Notes under the pieces: model-generated
What the model was told of the DNA's origin: nothing
The model's database searches: none
The model's input: the letters and a program-made list of their open reading frames with translations, nothing else
Made by a program: the position numbers and the translations under genes
Source of the DNA: Woeseiaceae bacterium
GTDB taxonomy: Bacteria; Pseudomonadota; Gammaproteobacteria; Steroidobacterales; Woeseiaceae
Length of the DNA stretch: 64,000 nucleotides
Assembly (NCBI GenBank): GCA_028279985.1
Contig: JANQMR010000033.1
Coordinates: 1-64,000 of the forward strand
Direction of reading: 5' to 3'
Shown: piece after piece, positions 1-49,151 of the stretch
Position numbering within the stretch: the first letter of the stretch is position 1
Layout of the letters: the number at the start of each line of letters is the position of its first letter

Positions 1-28
1 TTACCGACATGGCAACGAATCGAAAATC

Positions 29-493
29 ATGATCAAGAACAACTCCTTGCTCCTGGTGGTGGCGTCTCTCGCGATATCGGGCGTCCTTTTGGCCGGTACC
101 CGTATCGCTGCGGCGGACGACCCTGACCGCGATTGGCTCGCGCTGGAGGAAGCGCGGTATGCGGCGATGGTCCGCGTGGACCTGCCGGCGCTTCGAGCGA
201 CCCTGAGCGACGATCTCATTTTCACGCATGCGAGCGGCCGGCTCGACGACAAGGCGTCGTTCCTCGAAAAACTCTCGTCCGGCACACTCGTCTACGAAGC
301 CATCACGACCGACGATCTACGCGTGCAGGCGTACGATGCGTGTGTCGTCATCACCGGCAGGTCGCTGCTCGAGATTAAAGTCCGGGGCGAAGCTCGCGAG
401 CTCAACCTGAGGTTCACTTCCGTCTGGGTCGAGGACGAAGACGGTTGGAAGATCGTTGCCTATCAGTCCACCCATACGAGTCAGGGCACGTAA
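29..493 (+). CDS. Exported NTF2-like (DUF4440/SnoaL-type) protein
   Basis: The 154-residue product has an N-terminal hydrophobic segment (about residues 7-28, ending near AAADD) that looks like a signal peptide. After it comes a single small domain with the pattern of DUF4440/SnoaL-like proteins: a helical start with DRDWLALEEARYAAMV, then LSDDLIFTHASGR and a C-terminal strand WKIVAYQSTHT. Members of this fold are small-molecule binding or catalytic domains of varied function, so no reaction can be assigned. The gene stands alone; the next gene starts about 350 bases downstream. No clear ribosome binding site precedes the ATG. Fold assignment is an inference from motif order. Confidence 0.7.
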   Translation: MIKNNSLLLVVASLAISGVLLAGTRIAAADDPDRDWLALEEARYAAMVRVDLPALRATLSDDLIFTHASGRLDDKASFLEKLSSGTLVYEAITTDDLRVQAYDACVVITGRSLLEIKVRGEARELNLRFTSVWVEDEDGWKIVAYQSTHTSQGT

Positions 494-845
494 GCACCGC
501 CGGTCGGTCGTATACTCGCGTCGCCGTCGATCAAAGTGTGACGTGGCGCACATATTCCGGGCCGCGGAAATGAGACGTATAACGTGAGACGTATAGCGGT
601 AGTTGGTCCGCTTCGGAATACCGTTATCAATATCATTATGGTAAGTCCTGCGGAATGACAGGCGCTCACCCGAGGCTGCGACGCATTGGCGGACTGGCAT
701 CGGCGGACTACGTTCGGATTCGGGTGTTGTCATTTTGCGGCGGTAGCGGCCGGATAGTATCGTCTGTAGGATTGTCGCGTCCGAACGCGGGCGAGCGGCG
801 AGTTGGATCAAGCCCGGGTTTCAGTTATCTATGGAGGGACATCAA
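494..845. other. Intergenic region with short direct repeat
   Basis: No convincing gene is seen. The 11-base string TGAGACGTATA occurs twice at 571-581 and 585-595, a 14-base period. A GGCGGTAGCG string at 739-748 resembles the ops core but is not reliable on its own. The last part holds the ribosome binding site of the next gene. Confidence 0.5.
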
Positions 846-1712
846 TTGCTGATTCCAGTACGCGGTACGACAATCAGGCTGGCGGCGGCATCGTTGCTGA
901 TTTTGGGTTGCGGCTTGTCCGTGCCGTCGGCGGCAATCGCGGATGCGTATTTTGATTGGATCAAGTCGCGGCCGGAACTGCTCGCGGCTCGCACCTACGA
1001 CAACGCAGACGAGATCGAGGCGGACATCAACGCCGGCAATCCGGCCAATCGACAGAACCCTCCCGTTTACGATGCGCAGATGAACGCAGCGCGGTGGGAC
1101 ATGAGGATAGGCGTGGCGAGTCCCGACCAGCTACGCCCTGAATTCCCGACTGTCTCGTCGGGGAACCTGCTGCTGGTGTGGGAAGCGTATTGGGACAACG
1201 GTTTCCTCGGAGACCTTGGCGGGTTGCGTCAGCACAAGGCATTCCAATTGTCGAAAGACGGCTCCAACGATGCGCGGCGCATCGAGATCCGGACCCGATT
1301 CAACTTCGGCGGTGCGAACGACGTCGGAAAGATCGACGGTCGCGGCTACGTCTGGAATCCGTCGGGCGCGCCGTTGCCGGGGCAGGTCAACGACTTCTTC
1401 ATCGCTCCGGATACCTGGACCCGGTTCTGGGCTTACGTCGATTTCGATCGACGCGAATTCTCGCTCTGGGTGTCCGACGAAACGCGCGGGCCCGTGCAAC
1501 TATTTGATGCGCTCGACTACAACAACATGAGCGGCGGGCTGGACAACTTCTGGTTCGAGTTCAACTCGAGTCAGAACAGCGGTCCCGGCAGGACGCTCTA
1601 CATCTGGGGTCGCCACTTTGCCGCCCTGAAAGACGTATCGAACGTTGCGGAATTCTTGATAAAGGGCAGCCCGGTCCGACCGAATCCGCCCGGCGCGCTC
1701 ACCGCGGAATAG
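846..1712 (+). CDS. Exported protein, possible lectin/glucanase-like fold
   Basis: I place the start at a TTG (846) because GGAGGG lies at 833-838, seven bases upstream. An ATG in frame at 831 overlaps that site and has no ribosome binding site of its own. The product has a signal peptide (LAAASLLILGCGLSVPSAAIADA) and a mature part rich in aromatic residues and beta-strand patterns (LLLVWEAYWDNGF, RIEIRTRFNF, TWTRFWAYVDFDRREFSLWVSDE, FWFEFNSSQN). This is the kind of pattern seen in concanavalin-like polysaccharide lyase or lectin folds, but I recognise no family signature or catalytic residues. Being next to polysaccharide genes it may act on or bind a glycan; that is inference. Confidence 0.65.
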   Translation: MLIPVRGTTIRLAAASLLILGCGLSVPSAAIADAYFDWIKSRPELLAARTYDNADEIEADINAGNPANRQNPPVYDAQMNAARWDMRIGVASPDQLRPEFPTVSSGNLLLVWEAYWDNGFLGDLGGLRQHKAFQLSKDGSNDARRIEIRTRFNFGGANDVGKIDGRGYVWNPSGAPLPGQVNDFFIAPDTWTRFWAYVDFDRREFSLWVSDETRGPVQLFDALDYNNMSGGLDNFWFEFNSSQNSGPGRTLYIWGRHFAALKDVSNVAEFLIKGSPVRPNPPGALTAE

Positions 1713-1785: not shown

Positions 1786-2937
1786 GTGACGAGCGATAGC
1801 CAGGGGATGCACCCGGAGATACGACGGTACACGAGTGTCGCCGATCTTCCGCTCGCGATCCGAGATGGCACCGCGCGTGACGGCGTCGCCGGCTTTTTTT
1901 CCCGGTCCGAATGGTTTTCGTGTCTTGCGAGCGTCGGCTTCGAGCAGAAGCCGGCGCTATTGTTACTCGCCGGCCACGGGCAAGCCGGCCGCGATCGACA
2001 GACCTGCATTCTGTGGCTACAGACCGATCGGAGGAACGGTCGGCTGCGGAGTTTGACGAATCACTACACGATCCATTACCCCGGTCTCGTCGGACCCGAA
2101 ACGCACGCGCCGGAGATCGCCGCCAGGATGCTCGGGGTGTTGGCCGGGGAAAGTTCGCCGTGGAGCGAGATCGAGCTCCGCAACCTCTCGCTGCAAAGTC
2201 CGAACACGATCCTGCTGAAATCGGCGCTGGTGGCTGCCGGGTGGCGGGTGGAGCTGTTCCACCATCATTGGAACTGGTACGTGGACGTCACCGGGCGTAG
2301 CTTCGGGGAATACCTGGCTGCGAGACCGGCGAGGTTGCGGAACACCTTGCGGCGCAGGTTCAGGCAGGCCGGCGAACGCCATGCGCTTCGGCTCGAGGTT
2401 GCAGAGTGCGAACGGAAACTACCGGCGGCACTGGCCGAGTATCAACGGGTCTACGCTCTTAGCTGGAAAGAGCCCGAGTTCAGCTCGGCGTTCATACCGG
2501 CGCTGATGCACGTGTGCGCCGGATCCGGTGCGCTGAGGCTCGGCATACTCTATCTGGATGAACAGGCCGTGGCCGTGCAGTTTTGGATCGTCGCCGACGA
2601 GACGGCGTACATCTACAAACTGGCACACGATCCCGCCTACGAGTCCCTGTCGGTCGGCTCCCTGCTGACCGCGCATATGTTCGAACAGGCCATCGACGTC
2701 TGGCGTGTATCCGAGATCGATTTCGGCATCGGGAACGAAGCCTACAAGCGCGATTGGATGGAACACCGGCGGCAGCTCGTCGGGCTTCAGGCCCTCAATC
2801 CCGACACGGTGCGGGGCAGGTTGTTGCTGGCGAGGCAAGCCGTTCGAAACCTGCTGCGCAGGCTCGGACTTCGCGCGTACACGCCGGTGGACAACGGCCC
2901 GAAGCGGTCGAGACGCGACCCGGAGCCGGCAGGGTAG
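1786..2937 (+). CDS. FemAB/BioF2-like GNAT-family acyltransferase
   Basis: A 383-residue soluble protein with the layout of the Acetyltransf_6 (BioF2-like, CelD/BcsL/FemAB-related) family. It has a first half ending in the basic segment ARLRNTLRRRFRQAG (about 190-205), then a second GNAT-like half containing LRLGILYLDEQAVAVQFWIV, AYIYKLAHDPAYESLSVGSLLT and EIDFGIGNEAYKRDWMEHRR. The last two are typical of the acyl-donor side of this family. Proteins of this kind transfer acyl or aminoacyl groups and are frequent in exopolysaccharide loci. It opens a plus-strand run of acid-activating and reducing enzymes and may be the transferase for their product. The GTG start at 1786 is the longest reading; ATG at 1807 is possible. 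Confidence 0.75.
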   Translation: MTSDSQGMHPEIRRYTSVADLPLAIRDGTARDGVAGFFSRSEWFSCLASVGFEQKPALLLLAGHGQAGRDRQTCILWLQTDRRNGRLRSLTNHYTIHYPGLVGPETHAPEIAARMLGVLAGESSPWSEIELRNLSLQSPNTILLKSALVAAGWRVELFHHHWNWYVDVTGRSFGEYLAARPARLRNTLRRRFRQAGERHALRLEVAECERKLPAALAEYQRVYALSWKEPEFSSAFIPALMHVCAGSGALRLGILYLDEQAVAVQFWIVADETAYIYKLAHDPAYESLSVGSLLTAHMFEQAIDVWRVSEIDFGIGNEAYKRDWMEHRRQLVGLQALNPDTVRGRLLLARQAVRNLLRRLGLRAYTPVDNGPKRSRRDPEPAG

Positions 2938-2989
2938 CGTTAACCACGTCCGTTTCAGCTTCGGGATATGCTGATACTATTCGGGTCCT

Positions 2990-4123
2990 ATGGCAAAGCT
3001 TGCAATCAGCTACCCGCGCTTCCGGCATGCGCCCCTGGTGACTTTCGGGCGAGGTTCGGTCCGCTCACTCGCGGAGTGCGACGACGGCGCCACGGCATTC
3101 CTGTTGAGCGGCGCCAAGCACGTTCGTGCGTGTATCGAGGAGGCCCTGCAGCGCGGGTCCGGACGTCTCTCGGGCGACAACAGTCTGTGTAAACCGGCCG
3201 GCGAGCCCGACCTCGACGCGATTCGAGAGGGCGCGACGTTCCTCGAGGCGCGGCGCGCGCGGCGGATCGTGGCCGTCGGTGGCGGCTCGGTGCTGGACTG
3301 GGCCCGATTGGCCTGGGCCGAGTCGGCGGGCATCCTCGACCTCGATGCCGGAGAATTGCGGCCGGGCGCCGGGCTCGACAGACCGGAGTTCTGGTTGTTG
3401 CCGACGACATGCGGCACGGGTGCGGAAGCGGCGGACGTAGTCGTCTACGCCGATCGCACTGGAGAAAAACGTTCGCTTGTGGCGCCGGTGTTCGCGGCGC
3501 AGCACGTGATTCTTGACAGCCGTTTTCTCGACGGCATACCGGCCACAAGGCTCGCGGGTTTCGTCAGCGACGCCATCAGCCACGGCGTTGAGTCGTACCT
3601 TTCCGTCGTACCGAATACGCTGGCGAGGGCTTCGGCGCTGAGCGCCCTGCGTCTGATCTTCGAGCATTTCGAGCCGCAACCCGATCATGCGCAGCAGGAT
3701 CGCCTGATGGAGGCGAGCTTTTTGGCCGGCGTTGCCGCGGCGAATTGCTCGGTAGGTATCGTTCACGCCTACGCCCATGCCATCGGCCGTGACGGCGTGC
3801 CTCACGGCCTGGCCAACGCCGCCGGGCTCGATGCCGGCATCGCCTTCAATGCCGAGACGCCGCAGATGACCGGATTGCTGGCGGCTTTGGGCATGTCGCA
3901 CGTCGATGCGTTACGCCGTAGCGTGCAGCGGATTACCGACGTAGCGCTGCAAGCGGCCGGTGAATACGAGGCGATCGACCGGTTCGCGGCCGATCCGGAT
4001 TATCGTGCAGAGATAGCCGAACGTATGGCGCGTGACGTTGCAATTCGCTCCAATCCGCGGCGTCCCAGTCCGGACGAGCGGCTTGCGTTCGTTACCGAGA
4101 TCGCCGCCCGGCAGGCCGCATGA
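2990..4123 (+). CDS. Iron-containing (group III) alcohol dehydrogenase
   Basis: A 377-residue protein with the family layout. An N-terminal Rossmann-like nucleotide domain holds VAVGGGSVLDWAR (about 93-105) and the TTCGTGAE stretch (about 142-149). The C-terminal helical domain carries metal-ligand regions FVSDAISHGVES and GIVHAYAHAIGRDGVPHG. It would interconvert an aldehyde and an alcohol with NAD(P)H. The stop overlaps the ATG of the following ligase gene by four bases, so the two are translationally coupled. In this run the likely role is final reduction of an aldehyde made by the LuxC-like protein at 6764; the substrate is not known. Confidence 0.85.
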   Translation: MAKLAISYPRFRHAPLVTFGRGSVRSLAECDDGATAFLLSGAKHVRACIEEALQRGSGRLSGDNSLCKPAGEPDLDAIREGATFLEARRARRIVAVGGGSVLDWARLAWAESAGILDLDAGELRPGAGLDRPEFWLLPTTCGTGAEAADVVVYADRTGEKRSLVAPVFAAQHVILDSRFLDGIPATRLAGFVSDAISHGVESYLSVVPNTLARASALSALRLIFEHFEPQPDHAQQDRLMEASFLAGVAAANCSVGIVHAYAHAIGRDGVPHGLANAAGLDAGIAFNAETPQMTGLLAALGMSHVDALRRSVQRITDVALQAAGEYEAIDRFAADPDYRAEIAERMARDVAIRSNPRRPSPDERLAFVTEIAARQAA

Positions 4124-5559
4124 CGAATGTCATGACGAATGTGCTGGAATCATGGCTGCGCGCGGCCGATCCGGATGCCGTAGCCGTCGCGGACGGCGAC
4201 GAGCGCCTGACTTACGGTGAACTGCTCGATCGGTCTGCCGTGCTCGCAAGCACCTATCAGGCCGCAAACGGTCTCGGCACGTATCTCTTGGTGCCGGCCG
4301 AAAAATCGATCGCCTTCGTGGTCGCGCTGGTCGCTGCGTCGCGCAGCGGCAATATTCCGGTGCCGGTGGACCCGGCATCGCCCAAGTCCGCGCTGGAGGC
4401 CATCGCCGCGCGCTGCGGAGGCGCGACTCTGGTCGACCCTGCCGCTTACGGCGAAGCGGGCGGTGATGCGGAGCTGGCGCCGGCAAGCGCCGACAAGGCG
4501 CTCGTTCTCTTCACGTCCGGCACGAGCGGCGTGCCCAAGGGCGTTCCCGTGAGTTGGGATAATCTGCTGCACTCGGTGAAAACGGTTTCCGCTTATCTGG
4601 AGTATGCAAGGTACCGGTCCGCGGCGATCGTGTTGCCGCTGCATTACAGTTACGCGCTGCTCACGCAGCTTTTCACGATGTTCTACGTCGGCGGCCACGT
4701 GCGCCTGTTCGCCAGTTTTCGCAATCCCATCAAGTTCGCAAAGGCAGTCGAGGCCGAGAATCTCGAGACTTTCTGTGGGGTCCCGTCCACGTATCACGCC
4801 TTGTGCACGATCCATCGCATGGCCCCGCTGAGCATGCCCGGGGTCAGGGTGCTGTGTTCGGCTGGAGCGGCGATGGATCGAACGCTCATGCCGGAGATAC
4901 GGGAGATGTTCCCGCAGGCGCGCTTCTTCGACAACTACGGCATGACCGAGGCAACGCCGCGGATTTCCTACGTGAGGGGCGATGATCCGCGTTTCGCCGA
5001 GCCGACCTGCGGCCGGGCGATCGACGGGCTGGAGGTCCGGGTACTCGATGAACGGAGCCATGCCCCGGTCGAGGATGGAGAGCAGGGTATCGTCGCAATA
5101 CGGGGCCCCAACGTATTCGACGGTTACCTCAACGATCCGCAGAGCAGCCGCAAGGCATTTACAGGCGACGGTTTCCTGCTGTCCGGCGACTACGGTTATA
5201 TTCGCGATGGCTATATTTACATAACGGGGCGCTCGGACGACGTTTTCAACGTCGGCGGCGAGAAGATCGCGCCGCTGGAGATCGAGCGGGCTTTGTCCGA
5301 GCATCCATCGATCATCTCCAGTGCGATCGGCAGGATCGAAGACGAGATTCGGGGCACGCTATCGGTCGCCTACATCGAGACTCATGACGACGTCCGGCGC
5401 GAGGAGATCATCGCTTTCCTCGGGGAACGGCTTGTGCCGGCAAAAATCCCCTACCGGTACGTGCGCGTCTCGTCCTGGCCTTTGACGGCAAACGGAAAAC
5501 TGCAGCGTTCACGCTTGTCTCCCGACGATGAGACATTCGTCATCGGCGAGTTGCAGTAA
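4120..5559 (+). CDS. AMP-forming acyl-CoA/ACP ligase (ANL superfamily)
   Basis: 479 residues with the adenylate-forming signatures in order: FTSGTSGVPKG (P-loop-like, about 129-139), YGMTEA (about 271-276), GDYGYIRDGYIYITGRSDD (about 369-387) and a C-terminal catalytic lysine in ANGKLQR (about 461-467). It activates a carboxylic acid as acyl-AMP and passes it to CoA or to a carrier protein. With an ACP gene in the same run (8067), loading of that ACP is plausible. The first codons are a perfect-phase duplication (ATGACGAATGTC then ATGACGAATGTG, 4120-4143) giving MTNVMTNV and two possible starts; the first overlaps the upstream stop. The 3' end begins a tandem repeat that re-copies the stop codon. 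Confidence 0.88.
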   Translation: MTNVMTNVLESWLRAADPDAVAVADGDERLTYGELLDRSAVLASTYQAANGLGTYLLVPAEKSIAFVVALVAASRSGNIPVPVDPASPKSALEAIAARCGGATLVDPAAYGEAGGDAELAPASADKALVLFTSGTSGVPKGVPVSWDNLLHSVKTVSAYLEYARYRSAAIVLPLHYSYALLTQLFTMFYVGGHVRLFASFRNPIKFAKAVEAENLETFCGVPSTYHALCTIHRMAPLSMPGVRVLCSAGAAMDRTLMPEIREMFPQARFFDNYGMTEATPRISYVRGDDPRFAEPTCGRAIDGLEVRVLDERSHAPVEDGEQGIVAIRGPNVFDGYLNDPQSSRKAFTGDGFLLSGDYGYIRDGYIYITGRSDDVFNVGGEKIAPLEIERALSEHPSIISSAIGRIEDEIRGTLSVAYIETHDDVRREEIIAFLGERLVPAKIPYRYVRVSSWPLTANGKLQRSRLSPDDETFVIGELQ

Positions 5560-5655
5560 GCGAGTTACAGTAAGTGAATTACGGTAAGCGAATTACGGTA
5601 AGCGAGTCGCGGTAGGCAAGTTGCAGTAAGCGAGAGAGTGAGCAAGTCGCAATGA
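5546..5655. repeat. Degenerate 14-bp tandem repeat starting at a stop codon
   Basis: Eight units follow each other without gaps. The first, GCGAGTTGCAGTAA, is the 3' end of the ligase gene including its TAA. Next come GCGAGTTACAGTAA, GTGAATTACGGTAA, GCGAATTACGGTAA, GCGAGTCGCGGTAG, GCAAGTTGCAGTAA, a 12-base unit and GCAAGTCGCAATGA. Every unit ends in TAA, TAG or TGA. As 14 is not a multiple of three, stops fall in all frames. Confidence 0.9.
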
Positions 5656-5685
5656 GGTCGCAATCAGCAGGCGGAGGCCCGGCGG

Positions 5686-6780
5686 TTGAATAATCTGTTC
5701 GTCCAGGATGTCGGCCCGTTTTCCATGCGCCCGCAAGAAAAGGCGGCGTTCCTCGGCAGCCGCTTGAGCGAGTTGCTCGAGTACCATGTCGAGCGCTGCC
5801 CGCAATACGCGACGCTGGTCGCGGACTGGCGCCGGACCGGGGGCCGGGAGGCCGACAATATAGTCGACAATATAGCGGACTATCCGTTCGTGCCGGTATC
5901 GCTGTTCAAGGAATACGATCTGCGATCGAGCCGGGAAGAGCTGGCAGTCATCCAGTCTTCTTCGACTACTTCTACCAGCGCGGCGAAGGTGTACGTGGAC
6001 AAGGAGAGCCGTAAACGCCAGACGCGTAGCGCCAACCTGATCCTGGCCGACTTCATCGGTGCGGAACGCCGCCCCTACCTGGTTTTCGACCTCGAATCCA
6101 CGGTGCGCGGAACGAAAGGTTTCAGCGCGAGGGGTGCGGCGATTCTGGCGCTGGCGCACATGGCGAACGAGTTCCATTTCGTCATGGTAGAAGGAGATAA
6201 CGGTCCGGAGATCGACCTGGACGCGCTGTCGGCGGCGTTGGCGAAGATCGACGGCCGGCCGTTCATTGCGTACGGCTTCACCTACCTCCTGTACCAGGCA
6301 CATCGTGCGATGTCGGAGCTGTCCGGCCTCGAAGCGCATCCGGATTCGGTCTTCCTGCATAGCGGCGGATGGAAGAAGCTGACCGATATTGCGGTAGACA
6401 AACCCGCCTTCAACGCGACGGTCGCCGAACCGTGGAGATTGGCGCATGAGCGGGTCATCGATTTTTACGGCATGGTCGAGCAGATCGGTATCGTCTATCC
6501 CGATTGTCCGGAAGGCGTCAAACACGTTCCGTACTGGGCCGATGTGATCATGCGCCGTGCCGACACGCTCGAGCCCGCCGAGCCCGGCGAGCCGGGTCTC
6601 ATCCAGTTAATCAGCAGCCTGCCGCTGGCAGCGCCCAATCACTCGGTCCTGTCGGAAGATCTCGGGTGTATCGTCCAGACGAATGGCTGCGCCTGCGGCA
6701 GATCGGGTACCGCTTTCGTCTTCCGCGGCCGTGCGCCGCGTTCCGAAACCCGGGGGTGCAGCGATGTCGTACGCCGTTGA
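5686..6780 (+). CDS. LuxE-like acyl-protein synthetase
   Basis: 364 residues. TTG start at 5686 is supported by GGAGG at 5673-5677. The adenylation-type S/T-rich loop SSSTTSTSAAKVY (about 91-103) and the C-terminal signature CACGRSGTAFVFRGRAPRSE followed by RGCSD match the LuxE/PaaK-like family. In that family the protein adenylates a carboxylic acid and transfers the acyl group to the reductase LuxC. Its 3' end overlaps the LuxC-like gene by 17 bases, consistent with a complex. There is no luciferase gene in the window, so the role is not light production. A 12-base in-frame duplication (5854-5877) gives DNIVDNIAD in a loop before the adenylation motif. Confidence 0.85.
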   Translation: MNNLFVQDVGPFSMRPQEKAAFLGSRLSELLEYHVERCPQYATLVADWRRTGGREADNIVDNIADYPFVPVSLFKEYDLRSSREELAVIQSSSTTSTSAAKVYVDKESRKRQTRSANLILADFIGAERRPYLVFDLESTVRGTKGFSARGAAILALAHMANEFHFVMVEGDNGPEIDLDALSAALAKIDGRPFIAYGFTYLLYQAHRAMSELSGLEAHPDSVFLHSGGWKKLTDIAVDKPAFNATVAEPWRLAHERVIDFYGMVEQIGIVYPDCPEGVKHVPYWADVIMRRADTLEPAEPGEPGLIQLISSLPLAAPNHSVLSEDLGCIVQTNGCACGRSGTAFVFRGRAPRSETRGCSDVVRR

Positions 6781-8029
6781 CATCCGGCATGCACCCGACG
6801 CCGCCGGCGGATCTCTCGAAGAGGCCGTTGCGGCTTTGCGGGCACGTGCGCCTGACAGTGGGGTCGGTTTCACCGAGCGCCTGGAGGCGCTGGACCGGCT
6901 TGCCAAGGGAATCCTCGAGCCGTCGTCCGTCATCCGTCGGCAGGTCCCGGCTCAGGGGCTGGCCTACTTGGCGACGTTTCTTCAGAAGTGCCAGCTCGAG
7001 GGACTGATTCGCCGCGAGCTGGCCGATCCCCGGTCGCTGTCTGAGTTCGTGAGCGTCGGTTCGCGCAAAAGCATCCGGCATGTGCCGCGTGGACTCGTCT
7101 GTCACTGGGTGGCAGGCAACGTGCCGCTGCTGGCCCTGTTCTCGTGGGCCGTATCCGTGGTTCTCGGCAATCGCAACCTGGTCCGGCTGAGTTCCCGCCA
7201 GGAGGACGTCGTCTCGCCGTTTCTGGAGGCACTCGCAGGAGGGTCCGAAGCCGGAGCGGGTATCGCTCGCGAGACTGTCGTCGTGTCGTTCCCGACCGAT
7301 CACGCCGATGCACACCGCATCATGAGCGAAGCGGCCGACGTGCGGATCGCCTGGGGCGGTCGGGAGGCCGTCACGGCGGTTCGGTCGCTGCCGGTGCCGT
7401 GGGAATGTGAAGACATCGTATTCGGCCCGCGGGCGAGTCTCGCCGTGATCGACCCGGCGGCGATCGATCCTAAGGGTATCGGGAGGCTGGCGGTCGATAC
7501 GGCCGTTTTCGATCAGCTTGCATGCAGCTCGCCGCAATGTATCTTCGTCCGGGCGGGCCGCGACTCGGAACGCTTCAAACGTTTCCGCGACGACTTCAGC
7601 CGGGCTTTCGCCGACGCGGCGAACAACTATCCCCGGCATCCGCTGGATTTCTCGGAGACGTACACCATCGGGCTCGATCGGGCTCGGGCCTTGCTGGAGG
7701 GCGGCGAGATCGCCCGTGACGACGGCACGAGCTGGACGGTTGCCGTGCTGGACACACCGAACGATTCGGTGCAATGTGCCAACCGGTTCGTCCAGCTCAT
7801 CCCCTTCGAGTCGTTTAGCGAAGTCTATCCGCTGATTCCGCTCAACGTACAGACCGTCGTCACCCAGCTTGCCGCGGACGATCTCGCGGAGTTTACCGAG
7901 CAGGCGGCCCACTTCGGAGTGTGCCGTTTCCCGAAGCCCGGCGAGGGTAACAACTTCGAGAATCCTTGGGACGGCGTAGGGTTGGTATCGCGCCTCTGCC
8001 GTTCCGTGCTTCGTACCGACGCGATCTGA
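6764..8029 (+). CDS. LuxC-like acyl-CoA/acyl-protein reductase
   Basis: 421 residues from ATG 6764, preceded by a G-rich site and overlapping the end of the LuxE-like gene. Seen motifs: HVPRGLVCHWVAGNVPLLALFSWA (typical LuxC N-terminal region, about 103-126), the nucleotide-binding part NRNLVRLSSRQED, and the active-site cysteine in FDQLACSSPQ (Cys about 254). Such enzymes reduce an acyl thioester to an aldehyde with NADPH through an acyl-cysteine intermediate. Together with the LuxE-like protein this gives a fatty-acid-reductase-like pair, which may act on an ACP-bound or free acid in this locus. Confidence 0.87.
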   Translation: MSYAVDIRHAPDAAGGSLEEAVAALRARAPDSGVGFTERLEALDRLAKGILEPSSVIRRQVPAQGLAYLATFLQKCQLEGLIRRELADPRSLSEFVSVGSRKSIRHVPRGLVCHWVAGNVPLLALFSWAVSVVLGNRNLVRLSSRQEDVVSPFLEALAGGSEAGAGIARETVVVSFPTDHADAHRIMSEAADVRIAWGGREAVTAVRSLPVPWECEDIVFGPRASLAVIDPAAIDPKGIGRLAVDTAVFDQLACSSPQCIFVRAGRDSERFKRFRDDFSRAFADAANNYPRHPLDFSETYTIGLDRARALLEGGEIARDDGTSWTVAVLDTPNDSVQCANRFVQLIPFESFSEVYPLIPLNVQTVVTQLAADDLAEFTEQAAHFGVCRFPKPGEGNNFENPWDGVGLVSRLCRSVLRTDAI

Positions 8030-8066
8030 ACCTGTTTGCTTGACAACCGGAGAGTGCAGTAGACCC

Positions 8067-8321
8067 ATGAGCGACACGATGAGTGACACGGCGGCAGAAC
8101 TCAAGAAACTAATGGCCGACCTTTTCCAGTGCAGTGAGTCCGAGCTCTCCGACGACACCGGACCGGGCGATATCAACGGCTGGGATTCGCTGGGACACGT
8201 TTCCCTGATGGCGGAGATCCAGACCCGTTTCGGCAAGCACATTCCGGTGGAAGATGCGATCGAGATCGAGTCGATCGCCGACATCGTCCAGCTTCTCGAG
8301 AACATCGAGGCGACACACTAG
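8067..8321 (+). CDS. Acyl carrier protein
   Basis: An 84-residue acidic carrier protein with the phosphopantetheine site NGWDSLGHVSLM (Ser41) and a normal four-helix length. It would hold the acyl intermediate of this gene run as a thioester. The start region is duplicated: ATGAGCGACACG then ATGAGTGACACG (8067-8090) gives MSDTMSDT, so a start at 8079 is also possible. The stop TAG shares its G with the GTG start of the SDR gene. It resembles carrier proteins of polysaccharide and secondary-metabolite clusters more than the fatty-acid ACP (no fab genes around). Confidence 0.88.
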   Translation: MSDTMSDTAAELKKLMADLFQCSESELSDDTGPGDINGWDSLGHVSLMAEIQTRFGKHIPVEDAIEIESIADIVQLLENIEATH

Positions 8322-9076
8322 TGCAGGTATCCGGATCCGGCATCCTGATAACGGGCGGCGCCTCAGGCATCGGACTCGCTTGCGCGCAACAGCTCGCCGC
8401 CATGGGTGCTCGGATTCTGGTCGTCGACAACGACGTCGATGCGCTGGCAGAGTTGTCGACAGCCGGCGACGGTGAGCCGGGCATCGCGGCCCTGCGTTGC
8501 GACATCGGCGACGCCGCCGAGGTCGAGGCGCTCATGGCCGATGTCGCCGAGCGGTTCGGGGACATCGACGCGGTCGTCAACAACGCCGCGATTCTCCGCG
8601 ATCAGACGCTCGTCTCGCGTCTGGGCAAGCGCACCAAGAAGCATTCGGTCGAGGACTGGAACGCCACGCTTGCCGCCAATCTGACCGGTACCTTTCTGGT
8701 TGCGAGAGAGGCCGCGGCCGCTTGGGTGACGAAACGCCGGCCCGGCGTAATCATCAATACGTCATCCGTCGTGCGGACAGGTAACCCGGGCCAGAGCGCA
8801 TACGCTGCGACAAAGGCAGCCGTCGAGGCGCTCACGGTGACCTGGGCTCAGGAACTTGCGCCGTACAGGATTCGTGTCGCGGCGATTTCATACGGTTTCG
8901 CGGAGACGGGGATGACCCGTCGGATACCGCCATATTTTCTCGAGCGGATCAAGGCCCGTTCGCCGATCGGACGGTTCGCGACAGTGGAAGAACTCGCCGA
9001 GGGGTGCCGTTTCATCATCGAGAACGACTATTTCCTCGGACGAACGCTGGATCTCGACGGCGGGCTTCGATTCTGA
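8321..9076 (+). CDS. SDR-family oxidoreductase (3-oxoacyl/3-hydroxyacyl reductase-like)
   Basis: 251 residues. Glycine motif ITGGASGIGLA (about 9-19), NNAAIL (about 87-92), and the catalytic YAATKAA (Tyr about 163, Lys 167) are all present. It starts with GTG directly on the stop of the ACP gene, so coupling to the carrier protein is likely and a 3-oxoacyl-ACP or 3-hydroxyacyl reaction is a reasonable guess. An insertion-like segment VSRLGKRTKKHSVEDW after NNAAIL is also found in short-chain 3-hydroxyacyl dehydrogenases of this type. It ends the plus-strand run; the next gene is convergent. Confidence 0.82.
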   Translation: MQVSGSGILITGGASGIGLACAQQLAAMGARILVVDNDVDALAELSTAGDGEPGIAALRCDIGDAAEVEALMADVAERFGDIDAVVNNAAILRDQTLVSRLGKRTKKHSVEDWNATLAANLTGTFLVAREAAAAWVTKRRPGVIINTSSVVRTGNPGQSAYAATKAAVEALTVTWAQELAPYRIRVAAISYGFAETGMTRRIPPYFLERIKARSPIGRFATVEELAEGCRFIIENDYFLGRTLDLDGGLRF

Positions 9077-9209: not shown

Positions 9210-10433
9210 TCAGAGCAGGATCTCCGCAGCCGGGTGATGCGAGAGAAAATTCTCCGGGCTGGCGGTCTTGCCGTAGGCGCCGGACTGAAGAACGGCAATC
9301 AACGCGCCTGCGTCCAGCCTGCTGATCGTGACGCGATCTCCCAGAACGTCGAGCGGCGTACACAGCGGCCCCACGATTGTGGTCGTTTCCTCCGGTTGCC
9401 GCCGTTCGACGGCCGCTATCGGGTAGTTTCTTCGGATGACCTGGCCGAGGTTGCCGGACGCCGACAGATGATGGTGCAGCCCGCCGTCGGCGATCGCGTA
9501 GCGCCGGCCGCGCGATTCCTTGACGTCGACGATGCGGCAGACGTAGACACCCGCTTCTCCGACCAGGTAGCGGCCGAGTTCCATGATCACCTCGGGATCG
9601 CCGAGCTTCTCCCCCAGTCGCTCTACGGCACACTCCGCCGCCTCGGCGACGGTCGCCAGCTCGAGCGGCCGGTCTTTTGCAAAATAGGGGATGCCCAGGC
9701 CTCCACCCAGGTTGACGGTTGCGACGTCGGAGTCGGATGCGGCCGCCAGGCCGAGCACCAGGTCGACCGTGCTGCCGATACATGCGGCGATACCCTCCGC
9801 GTGCAGGCTCTGCGACCAGGCGTAGACGTGGAAGCCCTTGAAGCACAGGTCGAGCGACTTCAGTTTCGCAAGCGCGGCCGGAACTTGTTCCGCATCGATG
9901 CCGAAAGGTGACGGCCGCCCGCCCATTTTCATGCCGGCGCTCTTGAGTTCGAACACCGGGTTCACGCGCAGCACGATATTGGGGCGCATCCCCAGCGAAT
10001 CTGCCAGTGCGGCGATACGCTGCATCTCGTTGACCGATTCGACGCTGATTGTGACGCCTGCTTCGATGGCTGCCTGGATCTCGAAATCCCGCTTGCCGGG
10101 TCCGGCAAAACTCACACGAGACCGGTCGACGACCGTTTCCAGCGCCGTATTCAGCTCTCCCGCCGAGGCGATGTCGAGTCCGTCCAGCAACTCCGCCATG
10201 TGCGCGACGACGGCCGGCATCGGGTTGGCCTTGATCGCGTAATAGATGTGCAATCGTGTCGGCAGCGTTGCCCTGAGTTCCTCGACACGTGCGGACATGC
10301 GTGCGCGGTCGTAGACGTAAAGGGGGGTCTGCCCGGCCTCGTCGACTACTTCGGTGAGCTTGCGCCCCGCCCACGTGAGAACGCCGTCCCGATACTGCAG
10401 GGATTGCAACGCCGAGTGTATCTGCGTGTTCAT
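9210..10433 (-). CDS. PLP-dependent decarboxylase, exosortase A system-associated type
   Basis: 407 residues of the ornithine/diaminopimelate decarboxylase type III fold (alanine-racemase-like barrel). The lysine that binds PLP sits in YYAIKANP (about 64-71) and the glycine-rich phosphate loop is VNLGGGLGIPYF. Towards the end GPLCTPLDVLGD and QSGAYGKTASPENFLSHH match the group found next to exosortase A genes (the TIGR03099-like family, from memory). The substrate is unknown. It lies 16 bases after the ligase gene in the same direction and both belong to the same conserved pair of the XrtA exopolysaccharide loci. Confidence 0.87.
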   Translation of the reverse strand: MNTQIHSALQSLQYRDGVLTWAGRKLTEVVDEAGQTPLYVYDRARMSARVEELRATLPTRLHIYYAIKANPMPAVVAHMAELLDGLDIASAGELNTALETVVDRSRVSFAGPGKRDFEIQAAIEAGVTISVESVNEMQRIAALADSLGMRPNIVLRVNPVFELKSAGMKMGGRPSPFGIDAEQVPAALAKLKSLDLCFKGFHVYAWSQSLHAEGIAACIGSTVDLVLGLAAASDSDVATVNLGGGLGIPYFAKDRPLELATVAEAAECAVERLGEKLGDPEVIMELGRYLVGEAGVYVCRIVDVKESRGRRYAIADGGLHHHLSASGNLGQVIRRNYPIAAVERRQPEETTTIVGPLCTPLDVLGDRVTISRLDAGALIAVLQSGAYGKTASPENFLSHHPAAEILL

Positions 10434-10449: not shown

Positions 10450-12048
10450 TCAGCCTTTTCCCTCGGCCGTTTCCGCGACCGAGATTTCCAGCATCGCGAC
10501 GATCTCCCGCCGGTCGATTTTTCCGTTCGGATTACAGGGAAGCGTTTTCAGAAAGATGACATCGCACGGGACCATGTAACTCGGGAGCGCCGCACGGCAG
10601 GCGGCGAGCAGGCGGTCCTGCGTATCCTTCCCGGCCCGTGTCGACTCGCAGACCAGGACGATCGCTTGTCCCAGCTCTGCATCGGGCATGCCGACTGCGG
10701 CACAGTTGTCGACCAGGCCCGTAGCATAGACGACTTCCTCGATTTCGGCAGGACTGATGCGGTAGCCCGAGGACTTGATCATGTCGTCTTTGCGGCCGAC
10801 GAAGTACAGATAACCCTGTTCGTCACGCACGACCGTATCGCCCGACCAGACCGCTATGTCGGGAACGGAACGGCCGTCCGGCTGGTTCGGCGCCGGGCGG
10901 AACCGTCTTGCGGTCGACTCCGGATCGTTCCAGTAGCCGAGCGAGACCAGCGCGCCGCGATGCACCAGCTCGCCGGGTTCGCCGGGTTCGCACAGGGTGC
11001 CGTTCTCGCGGACCACGAGGATCTCGGCGTTCGGTATCGCCTTGCCGATCGACGTCGGCCGTCGATCGAGTTCATCCGGAGACAAGAACGTCGAGCGAAA
11101 TGCTTCCGTGAGCCCGTACATCAGGAAGACGTCGGTTTTCGGCAGGCGCTCGCGCAGCGCGGCCAGCGTATTGCTGGGCATCGCACCGCCCGTGTTGGTG
11201 ACATAGCGCAGTGTGTCGATCACCGTCTCGGGCCACTCGAGTCTGGCGAGCTGTGTCCACAAAGTCGGCACGCCCGCCAGACCGGTAGCGCCATGACGTT
11301 CAGCCGCGTCGACGACGTCGCGTGCGAGCAGGTAGTCCGTCAGCACGACGCTCGCGCCCACCGAGAACGCCGTAGTGAGCTGGCTAAAGCCTACGTCGAA
11401 TGAAAACGGCAGCACGGCCAGTATGACATCGTCCGCCGTGTTGCCGAGATACCCCGCGACGCTGCTCGCCCCGGCAATCAAGTTCCGGTGCGAGAGAACG
11501 ACGCCCCGAGGTTTGCCGGTGCTTCCCGAGGTGTACAGGATTGCGGCGATGTCGACGTCGATTCTGCTGACGGCGGTCCGGTCGGGCGCACCGCCCGCGA
11601 TGAGCGAATGCCAGCTCACCGGGTCGAGACGTCGAGGCAGGCGAGCGGCTCTCCCAGCTTCGTCCAATACGACGACGGTATGCAGGTCTTTGCACGCCGC
11701 AATCGCTTCGGCAAGGTCCTGTGCCCTTGCTGGCGTGGTGATCAGGACCGATACGCTACAATCGTCGAGTATGTGCGCGACCTGCGTCTTTTTCAGCCTG
11801 GGATTCACCGGCACGAACACGGCGCCCGCATAACTGGCGCCGAAGTACGACAGGACGGCTTCGATACGCTTGTCCAGGTAAACCGCGATGCGGTCTCCCG
11901 GCTCGACACCTGCCGCCTTCAAGCCGGATGCAACTTGCTGCATCGCAGTCGCGAGAGTCGCGTAGTCGAGCGATTCTCGCCGCCTGACCAAGGCCGTCCG
12001 GTTTGGTGACGTAGCGGCGGAACGTAGGATGAGATCGTGCAACAACAT
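10450..12048 (-). CDS. AMP-forming acyl-CoA ligase, exosortase A system-associated type
   Basis: 532 residues from ATG 12048 (MLLHDLILRSAATSPNRTALV), the start that matches the family; a longer open frame upstream has no similarity pattern. Signatures: LYTSGSTGKPRGV, MYGLTEAFRSTFL, WSGDTVVRDEQGYLYFVGR followed by KDDMIKSSG, and the catalytic lysine region CNPNGKIDRR. The LTEAFRSTFL stretch and the partner PLP decarboxylase point to the exosortase A-associated ligase family (TIGR03098-like). It probably activates the carboxylate of an amino acid or acid for the polymer. First gene of a two-gene minus-strand operon, divergent from the GT2 gene. Confidence 0.87.
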   Translation of the reverse strand: MLLHDLILRSAATSPNRTALVRRRESLDYATLATAMQQVASGLKAAGVEPGDRIAVYLDKRIEAVLSYFGASYAGAVFVPVNPRLKKTQVAHILDDCSVSVLITTPARAQDLAEAIAACKDLHTVVVLDEAGRAARLPRRLDPVSWHSLIAGGAPDRTAVSRIDVDIAAILYTSGSTGKPRGVVLSHRNLIAGASSVAGYLGNTADDVILAVLPFSFDVGFSQLTTAFSVGASVVLTDYLLARDVVDAAERHGATGLAGVPTLWTQLARLEWPETVIDTLRYVTNTGGAMPSNTLAALRERLPKTDVFLMYGLTEAFRSTFLSPDELDRRPTSIGKAIPNAEILVVRENGTLCEPGEPGELVHRGALVSLGYWNDPESTARRFRPAPNQPDGRSVPDIAVWSGDTVVRDEQGYLYFVGRKDDMIKSSGYRISPAEIEEVVYATGLVDNCAAVGMPDAELGQAIVLVCESTRAGKDTQDRLLAACRAALPSYMVPCDVIFLKTLPCNPNGKIDRREIVAMLEISVAETAEGKG

Positions 12049-12155
12049 CGATCTGGGACGTCGATTCGAAACTTCCAACAAACAATAGTCTATCATTGAG
12101 TTCGGAGCGATCGCTTGACCGAGGTCGCAAATCCCCGCGGGATGCCGGCGGGATT

Positions 12156-12170
12156 TTGACATTGCGTCAA
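12156..12170. promoter_or_regulatory. Inverted repeat TTGAC-N5-GTCAA
   Basis: A perfect 5-base dyad, TTGACATTGCGTCAA, 12 bases upstream of the candidate sigma-54 promoter at 12183. It could be a site for a regulator, but it is closer to the promoter than usual enhancer sites, so the assignment is weak. Confidence 0.35.
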
Positions 12171-13231: not shown

Positions 13232-13406
13232 CGTCATCGGTTACGACGACTTGCACGATCTACCTTACACGGTCTACCTCACACGATTTACAGAGGATGC
13301 TCCGGCATCCGAGTATCGGCGGTAGCAGGATGTGACCCTTGCGGTTGACTGCTTTCGCTGCTTGTGAATAAGCTTGCGGGCCTCGTCAACGGCCCGCGTG
13401 TCCAAG

Positions 13407-14306
13407 ATGTCTATCGTATCCGCTCTCAAGAAACCGCTCCGGCCGCTCAAGAAACCGATCTACGCGCTCGAGAAGGCGTATCGTGCCCGGTTGCCGGGGA
13501 AGCTCCGGATGCCCGATTTCGTGGGACTCGGCGCCGGTCAGGCCGGCAGCACCTGGCTCTTCGCACAACTGGAAAAGCGCCCGGACGTTTTTGTCGCCAG
13601 AAAAAAAGAGACACACTACTTTACCCGCAATTTCCACGAGTGGTCATTGGCGTACTACGCGTCGTTATTCGAGGAGGGCGGCGATCGCATCAGCGGTGAA
13701 ATCACTCCCGGTTACAACGTACTCCGGCCGGAACGCATCGAGTTCATGCACAAGATCATGCCGGACGTCCGGCTGATTCTCACGGTACGGAATCCGATCG
13801 AACGGTCGTGGTCCGCGGCGCGCCGCGTGATGTCGAAGCTGGCTGAACAGTGGGGCGTAAGCTTCGATCAGATCCCTGACGACGAGTTCTACGAATATTT
13901 CTCGAAGGAGTGGTTTTACCGACCCGAGCGGGGGATGGTGGGAGACGTCGTGCCGGGCTTGACGCAAGGTTATTACAGTCGGACGATCGACAACTGGACC
14001 CGCGTGTTTCCCGAGGAGCAACTGCTGGTCTGCTTCTTTGACGAGATGCGTAACGACCCGCAGGCTTATCTGAGACGCGTTTTACGTCACATCGGCGCAA
14101 ACGACGAAGTCGACTTGGATGCACCGTCGCTGCGAAAGAAAGTCAACTCCAATCCCGAACATGCGATGCCGCAGCGTTTCCACGAACATCTGGCGGAGAA
14201 GTACCGATCCGAGATCGAGGAGTTGGGTCAACGTTACGGCGAGCAGGTCGGCGGCTGGCAAGACTATCGCGGTTCGGGGTGCGGTTCGGGGTGCGGTTCC
14301 GGGTAG
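13407..14306 (+). CDS. PAPS-dependent sulfotransferase
   Basis: 299 residues from ATG 13407. The 5'-phosphosulfate loop is GLGAGQAGSTWLFAQL (about 38-53) and the 3'-phosphate site is LTVRNPIERSWSAARR (about 125-140). This matches the bacterial sulfotransferase family that modifies glycans or lipids; the enzyme would move sulfate from PAPS to a hydroxyl. In this locus a polysaccharide acceptor is likely. The C-terminus GSGCGSGCGSG is a 12-base tandem duplication (14271-14303) and is probably a dispensable tail. The gene is convergent with the flippase gene, with 26 bases between stops. Confidence 0.85.
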   Translation: MSIVSALKKPLRPLKKPIYALEKAYRARLPGKLRMPDFVGLGAGQAGSTWLFAQLEKRPDVFVARKKETHYFTRNFHEWSLAYYASLFEEGGDRISGEITPGYNVLRPERIEFMHKIMPDVRLILTVRNPIERSWSAARRVMSKLAEQWGVSFDQIPDDEFYEYFSKEWFYRPERGMVGDVVPGLTQGYYSRTIDNWTRVFPEEQLLVCFFDEMRNDPQAYLRRVLRHIGANDEVDLDAPSLRKKVNSNPEHAMPQRFHEHLAEKYRSEIEELGQRYGEQVGGWQDYRGSGCGSGCGSG

Positions 14307-18326: not shown

Positions 18327-19709
18327 TCAGGCGCCGTTGCGCGCCAAGTCGAGCAGCAGGGGATACTGTCGTTGCACGCGCTCCGAGAACGCTTCCGCCT
18401 TCTCGCCGATATCGCGGCGAAGCGGAACGAAATCGTCCAGCATCTCCCGGAACCGGCGGGTGAGTACGGTTTCGTCGATCTCGGAACCGTCGATCAGAAA
18501 TCGTTCCTGACCAAAAATCCTCATGTGCGCTTCCACCTTTGCCTCGAAGGATACCGCCAGCGTCGGGCAGGCGTTACGTTGCGCCAGGATCACGCTATGC
18601 AGGCGACTGGCGATCATCACATCGATGGTCGACAGCGAGCTCACCAGCGCGCGGACATCGTCGCTCGGCAGTTTGACCAGCGAGTCCGGGTCGATCTCGG
18701 GGCGGATCCGAGCGATCTGCCGCAGTAGCAGCTCCAATGCCTCGACGTCGTCCCAGGACGACGTCACGAAAACGAGCTCGTGTTCCGAGTCGAGTATCGT
18801 CAACGCGAGCTTCGCGAGTGCGTCGACGTAATTCCGATAGACGGCCTCCTGTCCCGGGACTCCGCGGCGGTGCGCTCCGTATTTGATCGGACTGATCGCG
18901 ATCCGGTAAGCCCCGTTGCGGCGTTCCGCAACCGGTTCGCGGCGGCCCGGCAGGCTGTACGCGAAGTCGGGGACGATCGGGTCGTCCCGCGTCGCGGGCC
19001 GACCCGAGAACGAATTCGAGAGCGAATTCGAGAGCCGGTCTCGCGACGCCGGGTCTCTGAACGACCGGTAGTCCGACCACGATAGTGCGCGCCGAATGAA
19101 ATAGCGGCTGAGCGGCAGAGATAGCGAACCGACACCGACGCTGGCTATCGCGAACGGCGTGCCGGTCAGTTTTGCAATCGCTGCCCACCGGAAGAGTGCA
19201 TAGGGGTGGCCCCACGCATTGCCGTAGGCATCGTTGAGCTGGCCGCCGCCACAGGCGAGTATCAGGTCTAAGTTTCGCGCGAGCGCGAACGACCGGCGCA
19301 AGTGGGAAGGCTCGGATCGTTTGGACCACAGCCAGGACAAACGCCTTGCTCCGGCGACAAGCAGCCGGCCGGCAATCGGTGTCCGCTTGATTGCAGACTT
19401 GATCCTGCCCAGCAGATTCGTGTCGGTTTCGGGTCCGACAGGTTTTTGTCGGGCCGTAGGCCGCCGGGGCAAGGGGCGCGGCCGGTCGGTCGCGGCGTCC
19501 TGCGGTCGGGTCAACTCAAACGGCCCGATCGATCCGGACGGGGTAACCGCCGACGTCCCATGCAGCGCACAAATCGTTTCCGGCTCGGTGACGAGGCTCA
19601 CGAACTCGATACTTTCGTCGTAGCGTTGCATGTTGGCTACGATGGCATCGTGGATCGCGCCGTCGCCCAGGTTGGCGCCCGAGTACGGGGTGAGCAATGC
19701 GATTCGCAT
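18327..19709 (-). CDS. Polysaccharide pyruvyl transferase family protein
   Basis: 460 residues starting MRIALLTPYSGANLGDGAIHDAIVANM, the usual N-terminus of the CsaB/WcaK-like family, with the later DLILACGGGQLNDAYG and IASRLHSVILAQRNACPTLAVSFEAKVEAHM (the conserved H-site region). The enzyme moves pyruvate from PEP onto a sugar to form a ketal, adding a negative charge. A low-complexity region at about 75-115 separates the first strand from the rest. A 12-base in-frame duplication (19006-19029) gives SNSLSNSFS. It stands alone on this strand, convergent with the dehydrogenase gene and divergent from the nucleotidyltransferase. Confidence 0.85.
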   Translation of the reverse strand: MRIALLTPYSGANLGDGAIHDAIVANMQRYDESIEFVSLVTEPETICALHGTSAVTPSGSIGPFELTRPQDAATDRPRPLPRRPTARQKPVGPETDTNLLGRIKSAIKRTPIAGRLLVAGARRLSWLWSKRSEPSHLRRSFALARNLDLILACGGGQLNDAYGNAWGHPYALFRWAAIAKLTGTPFAIASVGVGSLSLPLSRYFIRRALSWSDYRSFRDPASRDRLSNSLSNSFSGRPATRDDPIVPDFAYSLPGRREPVAERRNGAYRIAISPIKYGAHRRGVPGQEAVYRNYVDALAKLALTILDSEHELVFVTSSWDDVEALELLLRQIARIRPEIDPDSLVKLPSDDVRALVSSLSTIDVMIASRLHSVILAQRNACPTLAVSFEAKVEAHMRIFGQERFLIDGSEIDETVLTRRFREMLDDFVPLRRDIGEKAEAFSERVQRQYPLLLDLARNGA

Positions 19710-22450: not shown

Positions 22451-22471
22451 CGCCGGAGTCGCCCGAGAGCC

Positions 22472-22717
22472 TCAAGCGTCAGAAAGACGCTTCGCTTCGT
22501 CGATGATGTCGCCTACGGTTTCAAAGGACTCGATATCCGCGACACGGAAGCGGATTTTCAGCTCCTGCTCGACAGCCGCGATGAAAGTGATGTAGTTGAA
22601 GGAATCCCAGCCATTGACGTCGGTGCGCACGGTTTCTCTCGTGAGTACGATCGTATCGTCGAAAAGCAGCCGCCCGAGTATGCCGGCGAAGAGTTTGAGC
22701 AAGTCGCTGTCGTTCAC
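22472..22717 (-). CDS. Acyl carrier protein of the MBOAT/FkbH cassette
   Basis: An 81-residue carrier protein from a GTG at 22717 that overlaps the stop of the FkbH-like gene (GTGA). The attachment site is NGWDSFNYITF (Ser39) and the remainder is short and acidic as in ACPs. A longer open frame upstream is inside the preceding gene and is not used. It would carry a small acyl group loaded by the FkbH-like protein. It is the second ACP of the locus, separate from the one at 8067, which suggests two different acyl products. Confidence 0.87.
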   Translation of the reverse strand: MNDSDLLKLFAGILGRLLFDDTIVLTRETVRTDVNGWDSFNYITFIAAVEQELKIRFRVADIESFETVGDIIDEAKRLSDA

Positions 22718-49097: not shown

Positions 49098-49151
49098 TGA
49101 GGGCTTGGGCAACGACGCCTGCTGCGTGGGCGCGTGTGGAGATTTTTGTCG

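What the first reader, a model, noticed from the sequence alone, without database searches (positions are those of the whole stretch)
1786..9076. LuxC/LuxE-like acid-reduction run inside an exosortase A polysaccharide locus
Seven genes in one direction: GNAT/FemAB-like transferase, Fe-ADH, AMP ligase, LuxE-like, LuxC-like, ACP and SDR, most with overlapping or near-overlapping ends. Activation, thioester reduction to aldehyde, aldehyde reduction and a carrier are all present, but no luciferase. Seen: the motifs and the order. Known: LuxC/LuxE form a fatty-acid reductase. Inferred: the run makes a reduced acyl or alkyl group that decorates the exported polymer through the transferase.
Basis: partly seen in the sequence, partly recalled or inferred. 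Interest (0 to 1): 0.72.

Follow-up and report, generated by a model that had tools for sequence, protein, structure and literature searches.

The report
Hydroxyacid-making gene cassette for exopolysaccharide
A six-gene cassette that resembles, in gene content, the one assigned to a small acid on the cholera O1 sugar coat sits inside an exosortase-type sugar-polymer locus, where it probably makes a short reduced acid that is hung on the polymer: a new variant of a known kind of system, not a light-producing one.

Summary
The genes are real: Fe-ADH, AMP ligase, LuxE-like, LuxC-like, ACP and SDR on the + strand at 2990-9076. Exosortase A is not in the window, but the window's contig shares a unique 99-bp end with the contig carrying a full XrtA locus. 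The same six genes in the same order occur in two further lineages, both beside XrtA-type genes. The GNAT gene at 1786 is not part of the set: 7 XrtA-bearing relatives have it without LuxC. Another GNAT-like gene follows the SDR in both other lineages; its own-genome copy lies about 7.5 kb left of the window and is found, like LuxC, in the same 2 of 149 relatives, own included. LuxE/LuxC fall in a mostly Fe-ADH-linked clade. The closest described system is V. cholerae O1 VC0248-VC0252 (sequences not compared). Best reading: a tetronate-like cassette reduces one carboxylate of a short acid and loads the hydroxyacid on ACP for transfer to the XrtA polymer. Substrate and polymer are untested.

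The parts
2990..4123 (+). iron-type alcohol dehydrogenase (cassette gene 1); proposed to reduce the aldehyde to the alcohol
   Evidence: PF00465 70 bits, PF25137 58 bits; aligns to solved Fe-ADHs; same place in L027, L028, L029
4120..5559 (+). AMP-forming acyl ligase (cassette gene 2); proposed to load the acid on the ACP
   Evidence: PF00501 198 bits, PF13193 34 bits; 5e-181 to the L027 gene
5546..5634 (+). 14-bp tandem repeat, 6.4 copies, starting in the ligase stop region, between ligase and luxE
   Evidence: Tandem Repeats Finder, sequence read
5686..6780 (+). LuxE-like acyl-protein synthetase (cassette gene 3); TTG start; C-terminal Cys358 (counted from 5686) conserved 26 of 26
   Evidence: PF04443 160 bits; PDB 7xc6_E 5.6e-15
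6764..8029 (+). LuxC-like acyl reductase (cassette gene 4); frame open from 6683; Cys256 (counted from 6758) conserved 25 of 25
   Evidence: PF05893 214 bits; PDB 7xc6_A 2.6e-16 with the Cys aligned
8067..8321 (+). acyl carrier protein with DSL serine motif (cassette gene 5); frame open from TTG 8040
   Evidence: PF00550 31 bits; 2e-37 to the L027 gene
8321..9076 (+). FabG-like SDR (cassette gene 6)
   Evidence: PF13561 176 bits; nearest NCBIfam model PRK08217, 259 of 298 bits; SDR tree
1786..2937 (+). GNAT/FemAB-like transferase upstream; goes with XrtA rather than with the LuxC set
   Evidence: PF13480 108 bits; 8 of 149 relatives, own included; the 7 others have no LuxC match and have XrtA over its cut-off
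9210..10433 (-). context: decarboxylase, exosortase A system-associated (TIGR03099)
   Evidence: 540.8 bits, cut-off 478.45
10450..12162 (-). context: AMP-forming ligase, exosortase A system-associated (TIGR03098)
   Evidence: 753 bits, cut-off 592.35
1..99 (.). contig-end overlap with the start of contig C12, which carries xrtA
   Evidence: exact 99-bp match in reverse complement; only these two places in the genome

Best explanation
A cassette that makes a short, reduced acyl group for the exosortase-A polysaccharide, working like the tetronate cluster of Vibrio cholerae O1. Proposed steps: LuxE activates one carboxylate of a short (probably di-) acid as acyl-AMP and takes it on its C-terminal cysteine; LuxC takes it over on its catalytic cysteine and reduces it to an aldehyde; Fe-ADH reduces the aldehyde to an alcohol; the AMP ligase loads the remaining carboxylate on the ACP (before or after the reduction); the FabG-like SDR sets a further hydroxyl or its stereochemistry; a GNAT-like acyltransferase, coded 7.5-8.6 kb left of the window rather than at 1786, moves the hydroxyacyl from ACP to a sugar of the polymer. 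Two adenylating enzymes in one set make sense if one reduces and the other loads. Shown: genes, order, conserved cysteines, setting, co-occurrence, clade. Inferred: substrate, order of steps, SDR role, transferase role and target.
For: Six genes in the same order in L027, L028 and L029 (L029 is a close copy of L027), all beside XrtA-type genes. Own XrtA locus joined by a unique 99-bp overlap. LuxE+LuxC tree of 25 sets: the window group sits in a clade (support 0.99) of 10 sets, 9 of which have a Fe-ADH; the tenth, L042, starts 94 bases from a contig end. Among the 19 genome loci: LuxE with LuxC in 19, ligase in 17, ACP detected in 13, Fe-ADH in 12, SDR in 7, both in 3. Described V. cholerae O1 cluster: VC0248-VC0252 assigned to tetronate synthesis (PMC3441752); RfbL described with 2,4-dihydroxybutanoate and carrier RfbK (PMC12208996); VC0250 Fe-ADH, VC0251 acyl protein synthase/acyl-CoA reductase RfbN, VC0252 acetyltransferase (PMC9201469). 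L036 and L038 have ACP-ligase-FeADH-LuxE-LuxC-hexapeptide transferase, the same content. LuxC and the GNAT-like gene are found in the same 2 of 149 relatives, own included. A phosphopantetheinyl transferase lies just upstream in L028.
Against: No substrate or product is known for this set; the V. cholerae pathway is itself called putative (title of a cited reference, seen), and V. cholerae sequences were not compared here. The same paper says that RfbL (VC0249) groups in a tree with the V. harveyi acyl-ACP synthetase AasS, a fatty-acid enzyme. The Fe-ADH/SDR split is not clean: L031 with Fe-ADH pairs with L039 with SDR outside the Fe-ADH clade, and the SDR sets L032, L044 and L045 sit in the larger half of the tree together with the Fe-ADH clade (midpoint-rooted). 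The SDR has no counterpart in the V. cholerae set. The own copy of the GNAT-like gene is not adjacent to the set, its GNAT assignment is weak (Pfam E 0.004-0.015, below cut-off), and its fold could not be predicted (pLDDT 34.8). ACP is fifth here, not first.
Confidence: 0.57

Rival explanations
1. Fatty-acid reduction: the set makes a fatty aldehyde or alcohol (alkyl group) from a long-chain acid, as in the Lux fatty-acid reductase, and attaches it as a lipid anchor or alkyl decoration.
For: LuxC and LuxE fall in the same Pfam families as the Lux reductase and match PDB 7xc6 with both cysteines aligned. Authors of two flagellin-island papers read similar sets as fatty-acid synthesis and a possible liposugar. 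RfbL of V. cholerae is reported to group with a fatty acyl-ACP synthetase.
Against: Far below the NCBIfam luminescence models; no LuxD thioesterase among the seven genes; three LuxE cysteines conserved in 25 of 26 cassette LuxEs have no counterpart in the aligned LuxE of 7xc6; the described set nearest in content is assigned a four-carbon acid.
Confidence: 0.22
2. The set makes an acyl group for an amino sugar at the nucleotide-sugar stage (as may happen in flagellin islands), so it feeds a precursor and is not specific to the XrtA polymer.
For: Sets of ACP, 3-oxoacyl-ACP reductase, AMP synthetase, LuxE and LuxC lie in Aeromonas and Enterobacteriaceae flagellin glycosylation islands; in Paenibacillus L030, sister to the window group, a cytidylyltransferase follows LuxC.
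Against: Window LuxE/LuxC and SDR fall outside the clade of sets that have the five-gene order of those islands; all close relatives lie beside XrtA-type genes.
Confidence: 0.12
3. A stand-alone small-molecule pathway that only happens to lie in the polysaccharide locus.
For: The set is sporadic: LuxC in 2 of 149 relatives while XrtA is over its cut-off in 34 of 149. A Rhizobium plasmid LuxE/LuxC lies among transketolase, GMC oxidoreductase and FabZ genes, with one glycosyltransferase.
Against: The two other lineages with the same six genes also have it beside XrtA-type genes.
Confidence: 0.08

Closest known systems
Vibrio cholerae O1 tetronate cluster VC0248-VC0252 (rfbK-rfbO, wbeKLMNO)
   Same: By published gene names: carrier RfbK, ligase RfbL, Fe-ADH, LuxE/LuxC-type reductase RfbN and an acetyltransferase in a surface polysaccharide locus
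   Different: LuxE and LuxC are separate genes here, an SDR is added, ACP lies after LuxC, the linked transferase is GNAT-like, and the polymer is an exosortase-A type exopolysaccharide. V. cholerae sequences were not compared; that VC0248 is RfbK and the names rfbM and rfbO are recalled
Flagellin glycosylation island set (Aeromonas group II, Enterobacteriaceae)
   Same: ACP, 3-oxoacyl-ACP reductase, AMP synthetase, LuxE, LuxC
   Different: the passages seen name no Fe-ADH; sets with that order here (for example L061, L022) form another LuxE/LuxC clade and another SDR clade
Lux fatty-acid reductase (LuxC, LuxD, LuxE)
   Same: Pfam families PF05893 and PF04443, both cysteines aligned with PDB 7xc6
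   Different: no LuxD or luciferase among the seven genes; own ligase, ACP, Fe-ADH and SDR; far below the luminescence models

Membership tests
V. cholerae O1 tetronate-type cassette | ACP, AMP ligase, Fe-ADH and LuxE/LuxC reductase together | tested here: met
V. cholerae O1 tetronate-type cassette | acyltransferase gene in the set (VC0252 acetyltransferase) | tested here: inconclusive
   hexapeptide transferase in L036 and L038, none among the six window genes; a GNAT-like gene is linked instead
V. cholerae O1 tetronate-type cassette | LuxE/LuxC in the same sequence clade as RfbN | not tested
   V. cholerae sequence not at hand; only the Fe-ADH clade among 25 sets was tested
V. [quoted passage not shown]
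   needs polymer chemistry
Lux fatty-acid reductase | LuxD thioesterase and luciferase with LuxC/LuxE | tested here: not met
   none among the seven genes; rest of the genome not searched for them
Lux fatty-acid reductase | NCBIfam equivalog cut-offs for LuxC and LuxE | tested here: not met
   85 of 750 and 54 of 550 bits
Lux fatty-acid reductase | catalytic cysteines of LuxC and LuxE | tested here: met
Flagellin-island ACP/SDR/ligase/LuxE/LuxC set | five-gene content | tested here: met
Flagellin-island ACP/SDR/ligase/LuxE/LuxC set | LuxE/LuxC and SDR in the clades of the sets that have that order | tested here: not met
   no sequence known to come from an Aeromonas or enterobacterial island was compared
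Exosortase A (XrtA) locus | XrtA with PrsK, amidotransferase, deacetylase and glycosyltransferase over their cut-offs on the adjoining contig | tested here: met
   joined

The most novel reading that the evidence does not exclude
Exosortase-A polysaccharides of some bacteria carry a hydroxyacyl decoration made by a seven-part cassette (Fe-ADH, ligase, LuxE, LuxC, ACP, SDR plus a new GNAT-like acyltransferase family), so the dedicated transferase of a tetronate-type pathway is a protein family without a confident Pfam match, and the cassette marks which XrtA polymers are acylated.
Probability: 0.35. Interest if true: 0.55.

Novelty: new variant of a known kind. Interest (0 to 1): 0.42.

Why it matters
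The chemistry of exosortase-A exopolysaccharides is little known (recalled). A cassette like the one assigned to the V. cholerae O1 acyl group gives a concrete guess at one decoration. It also suggests that the bioluminescence label carried by such acyl-CoA reductases in annotated records (seen) misleads, and that sets read in flagellin islands as fatty-acid synthesis may make short hydroxyacids.

Tried and rejected
Rejected: a Lux luminescence operon; the 1786 GNAT as the dedicated transferase; the SDR as a copy of the SDR in the flagellin-order sets. Led nowhere: structure prediction of the GNAT-like protein (pLDDT 34.8), so no fold search was made; a profile search of it in the PDB (best E 0.15); PDB relatives of the ligase (gramicidin synthase, oxalate and malonate ligases among the first) do not fix its substrate; promoter scan, 0 found against 2.1 expected. 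Paper searches with exosortase and Lux terms showed no paper holding both, in 3 of 3 and 20 of 115 rows listed; this is no proof that none is in print. Rows left out before counts: for conservation and tree I used 26 LuxE and 25 LuxC; left out were duplicates or near-duplicates (L016, L020, L021, L029), L019, L035, the short loci L001-L015, and L038's LuxC, which a stop codon splits. L026's distant SDR hit was not counted as a cassette gene. The genome scan needed two conserved LuxC peptides, so its 19 loci are a sample biased towards LuxCs like those in alignment A1.
Full report
What is there. The LuxE-like gene starts at a TTG (5686) after a 14-bp tandem repeat that begins in the ligase's stop region. 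LuxC and LuxE match the solved Lux reductase pair 7xc6 with E 2.6e-16 and 5.6e-15, and the cysteines align (that these residues carry the acyl group is recalled). They are far below the luminescence models.

Setting. The own genome has one XrtA match, on contig C12. The first 99 bp of C12 and of the window's contig are reverse complements and occur nowhere else in the genome, as expected for neighbouring contigs of one assembly graph (inference). C12 carries XrtA, an amidotransferase, the stp2 glycosyltransferase, the deacetylase, PrsK and both hydrolases over their cut-offs; an stp1 relative, a second amidotransferase and a TIGR03097 relative are below theirs. The window itself holds TIGR03098, TIGR03099 and PrsR over theirs. 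If the join is right, xrtA lies about 26 kb left of window base 1 and reads in the same direction as the cassette.

Relatives. LuxC at E 1e-20 is found in 2 of 149 relatives (own and G128) and in 13 of 398 phylum genomes, own included, the 12 others at 39% identity or less. XrtA is over its cut-off in 34 of 149 and present at E 0.001 in 48; G128's exosortase is below the XrtA cut-off (183 of 208 bits) and on another contig than its LuxC. The one scan of named genomes gave 19 loci. Three are close (54-55%): L027 (the G128 record), L029 (90% of L027's bases without gaps) and L028, an acidobacterial MAG. All three have Fe-ADH, ligase, LuxE, LuxC, ACP and SDR in that order. L027 also has TIGR03013 over its cut-off and TIGR03108, TIGR03015 and TIGR03097 relatives below theirs; L028 has a TIGR03108 relative below cut-off and a phosphopantetheinyl transferase.

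Wider pattern. In the 19 loci LuxE and LuxC are always together (19; one frame in 6), the ligase is found in 17, ACP in 13, Fe-ADH in 12, SDR in 7; Fe-ADH only in 9, SDR only in 4, both in 3, neither in 3, two of which are cut by contig ends. A small, insensitive set of glycan-gene queries rang in 7 of 19, two of them the source of some queries or its near copy. In the tree of 25 sets (midpoint-rooted) one clade holds L022-L026 and the plasmid sets L060-L062: L022-L025, L060 and L061 have an SDR beside ACP or ligase, L062 one on the other strand, L026 none beside it. The window group is in a Fe-ADH clade (0.99), sister to Paenibacillus L030. Exceptions: L031 (Fe-ADH) pairs with L039 (SDR) outside that clade, and the SDR sets L032, L044 and L045 lie in the same half of the tree as the Fe-ADH clade. 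In the SDR tree the window group's SDRs are apart from those of the flagellin-order sets; they group with the cassette SDRs of L021 and L032 (0.90) and with two SDRs of the own genome (0.98), the closest 41% identical. So the SDR was probably gained separately from the flagellin-order SDRs; whether it was added to a Fe-ADH set or shared with sets like L032 is open.

Transferase. The 1786 GNAT has no match beside the relatives' sets. It is found in 8 of 149 relatives at 35-42% identity apart from the own copy; the 7 others have no LuxC match and all have XrtA over cut-off; four of the seven share one genus, and two matches hold stops. A 369-aa protein after the SDR in L027 and L028 (44% identical) has its own-genome copy at C12:7649-8731 (49%). 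It is found in 2 of 149 relatives, the same two as LuxC, and in 1 of 398 phylum genomes, the own one, so the 12 genomes with distant LuxC lack it. Its GNAT nature rests on weak Pfam hits.

Known systems. VC0248-VC0252 of V. cholerae O1 are assigned to tetronate synthesis, and a wbeL deletion has no O1 antigen (PMC3441752, passages). RfbL is described with 2,4-dihydroxybutanoate and carrier RfbK, and is said to group in a tree with the fatty acyl-ACP synthetase AasS (PMC12208996, passages). A gene table names VC0250 Fe-ADH, VC0251 acyl protein synthase/acyl-CoA reductase RfbN and VC0252 acetyltransferase (PMC9201469, passage). The 1995 paper by Morona and others was seen only as a citation. Flagellin islands hold ACP, oxoacyl reductase, ligase, LuxE and LuxC (PMC7874193 and PMC4875605, passages).

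Verdict. A new variant of a known kind: a tetronate-like cassette, with an SDR and a probable GNAT-like transferase, in exosortase-A loci. The substrate, the order of steps and the acceptor are inferred. On checking I lowered the main reading from 0.60 to 0.57 and raised the fatty-acid rival from 0.20 to 0.22, because of the AasS remark and the tree exceptions.

Noticed in passing
window 20828-24597 (-): FkbH-domain protein, a small PP-binding ORF at 22472-22780 and an MBOAT acyltransferase: possibly a second carrier-protein acyl decoration set in the same locus.
   Followed up: partly
window 1-99: Exact reverse-complement overlap with the start of contig C12, unique in the genome, so the XrtA locus probably continues off the left edge.
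   Followed up: yes
window 5546-5634: 14-bp tandem repeat, 6.4 copies, that begins in the ligase stop region and carries repeated stop codons before luxE.
   Followed up: no
window 5686-6780: LuxE residues C274, C335 and C337 are each conserved in 25 of 26 cassette LuxEs and have no cysteine in the aligned LuxE of 7xc6; possibly a metal site.
   Followed up: partly
window 831-1712 (+): Possibly secreted 293-aa protein upstream of the set with no Pfam or NCBIfam match at E 0.001 (weak chance-level hit).
   Followed up: no
window 18327-19709 (-): Relative of polysaccharide pyruvyl transferase CsaB (65 of 213 bits); with the sulfotransferase at 13374-14306 it hints at a much decorated polymer.
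   Followed up: no
window 49134-51275 (+): Protein with a short stretch (residues 50-117) like part of myxosortase- and rhombosortase-dependent M36 peptidases, far below the cut-offs.
   Followed up: no
L031, L036, L038, L039, L041: The same ACP-ligase-LuxE-LuxC core occurs in records named as archaea and candidate-phylum bacteria.
   Followed up: partly
L038 9522-10802: LuxC split by one in-frame stop codon in a Woesebacteria MAG; left as it is.
   Followed up: no
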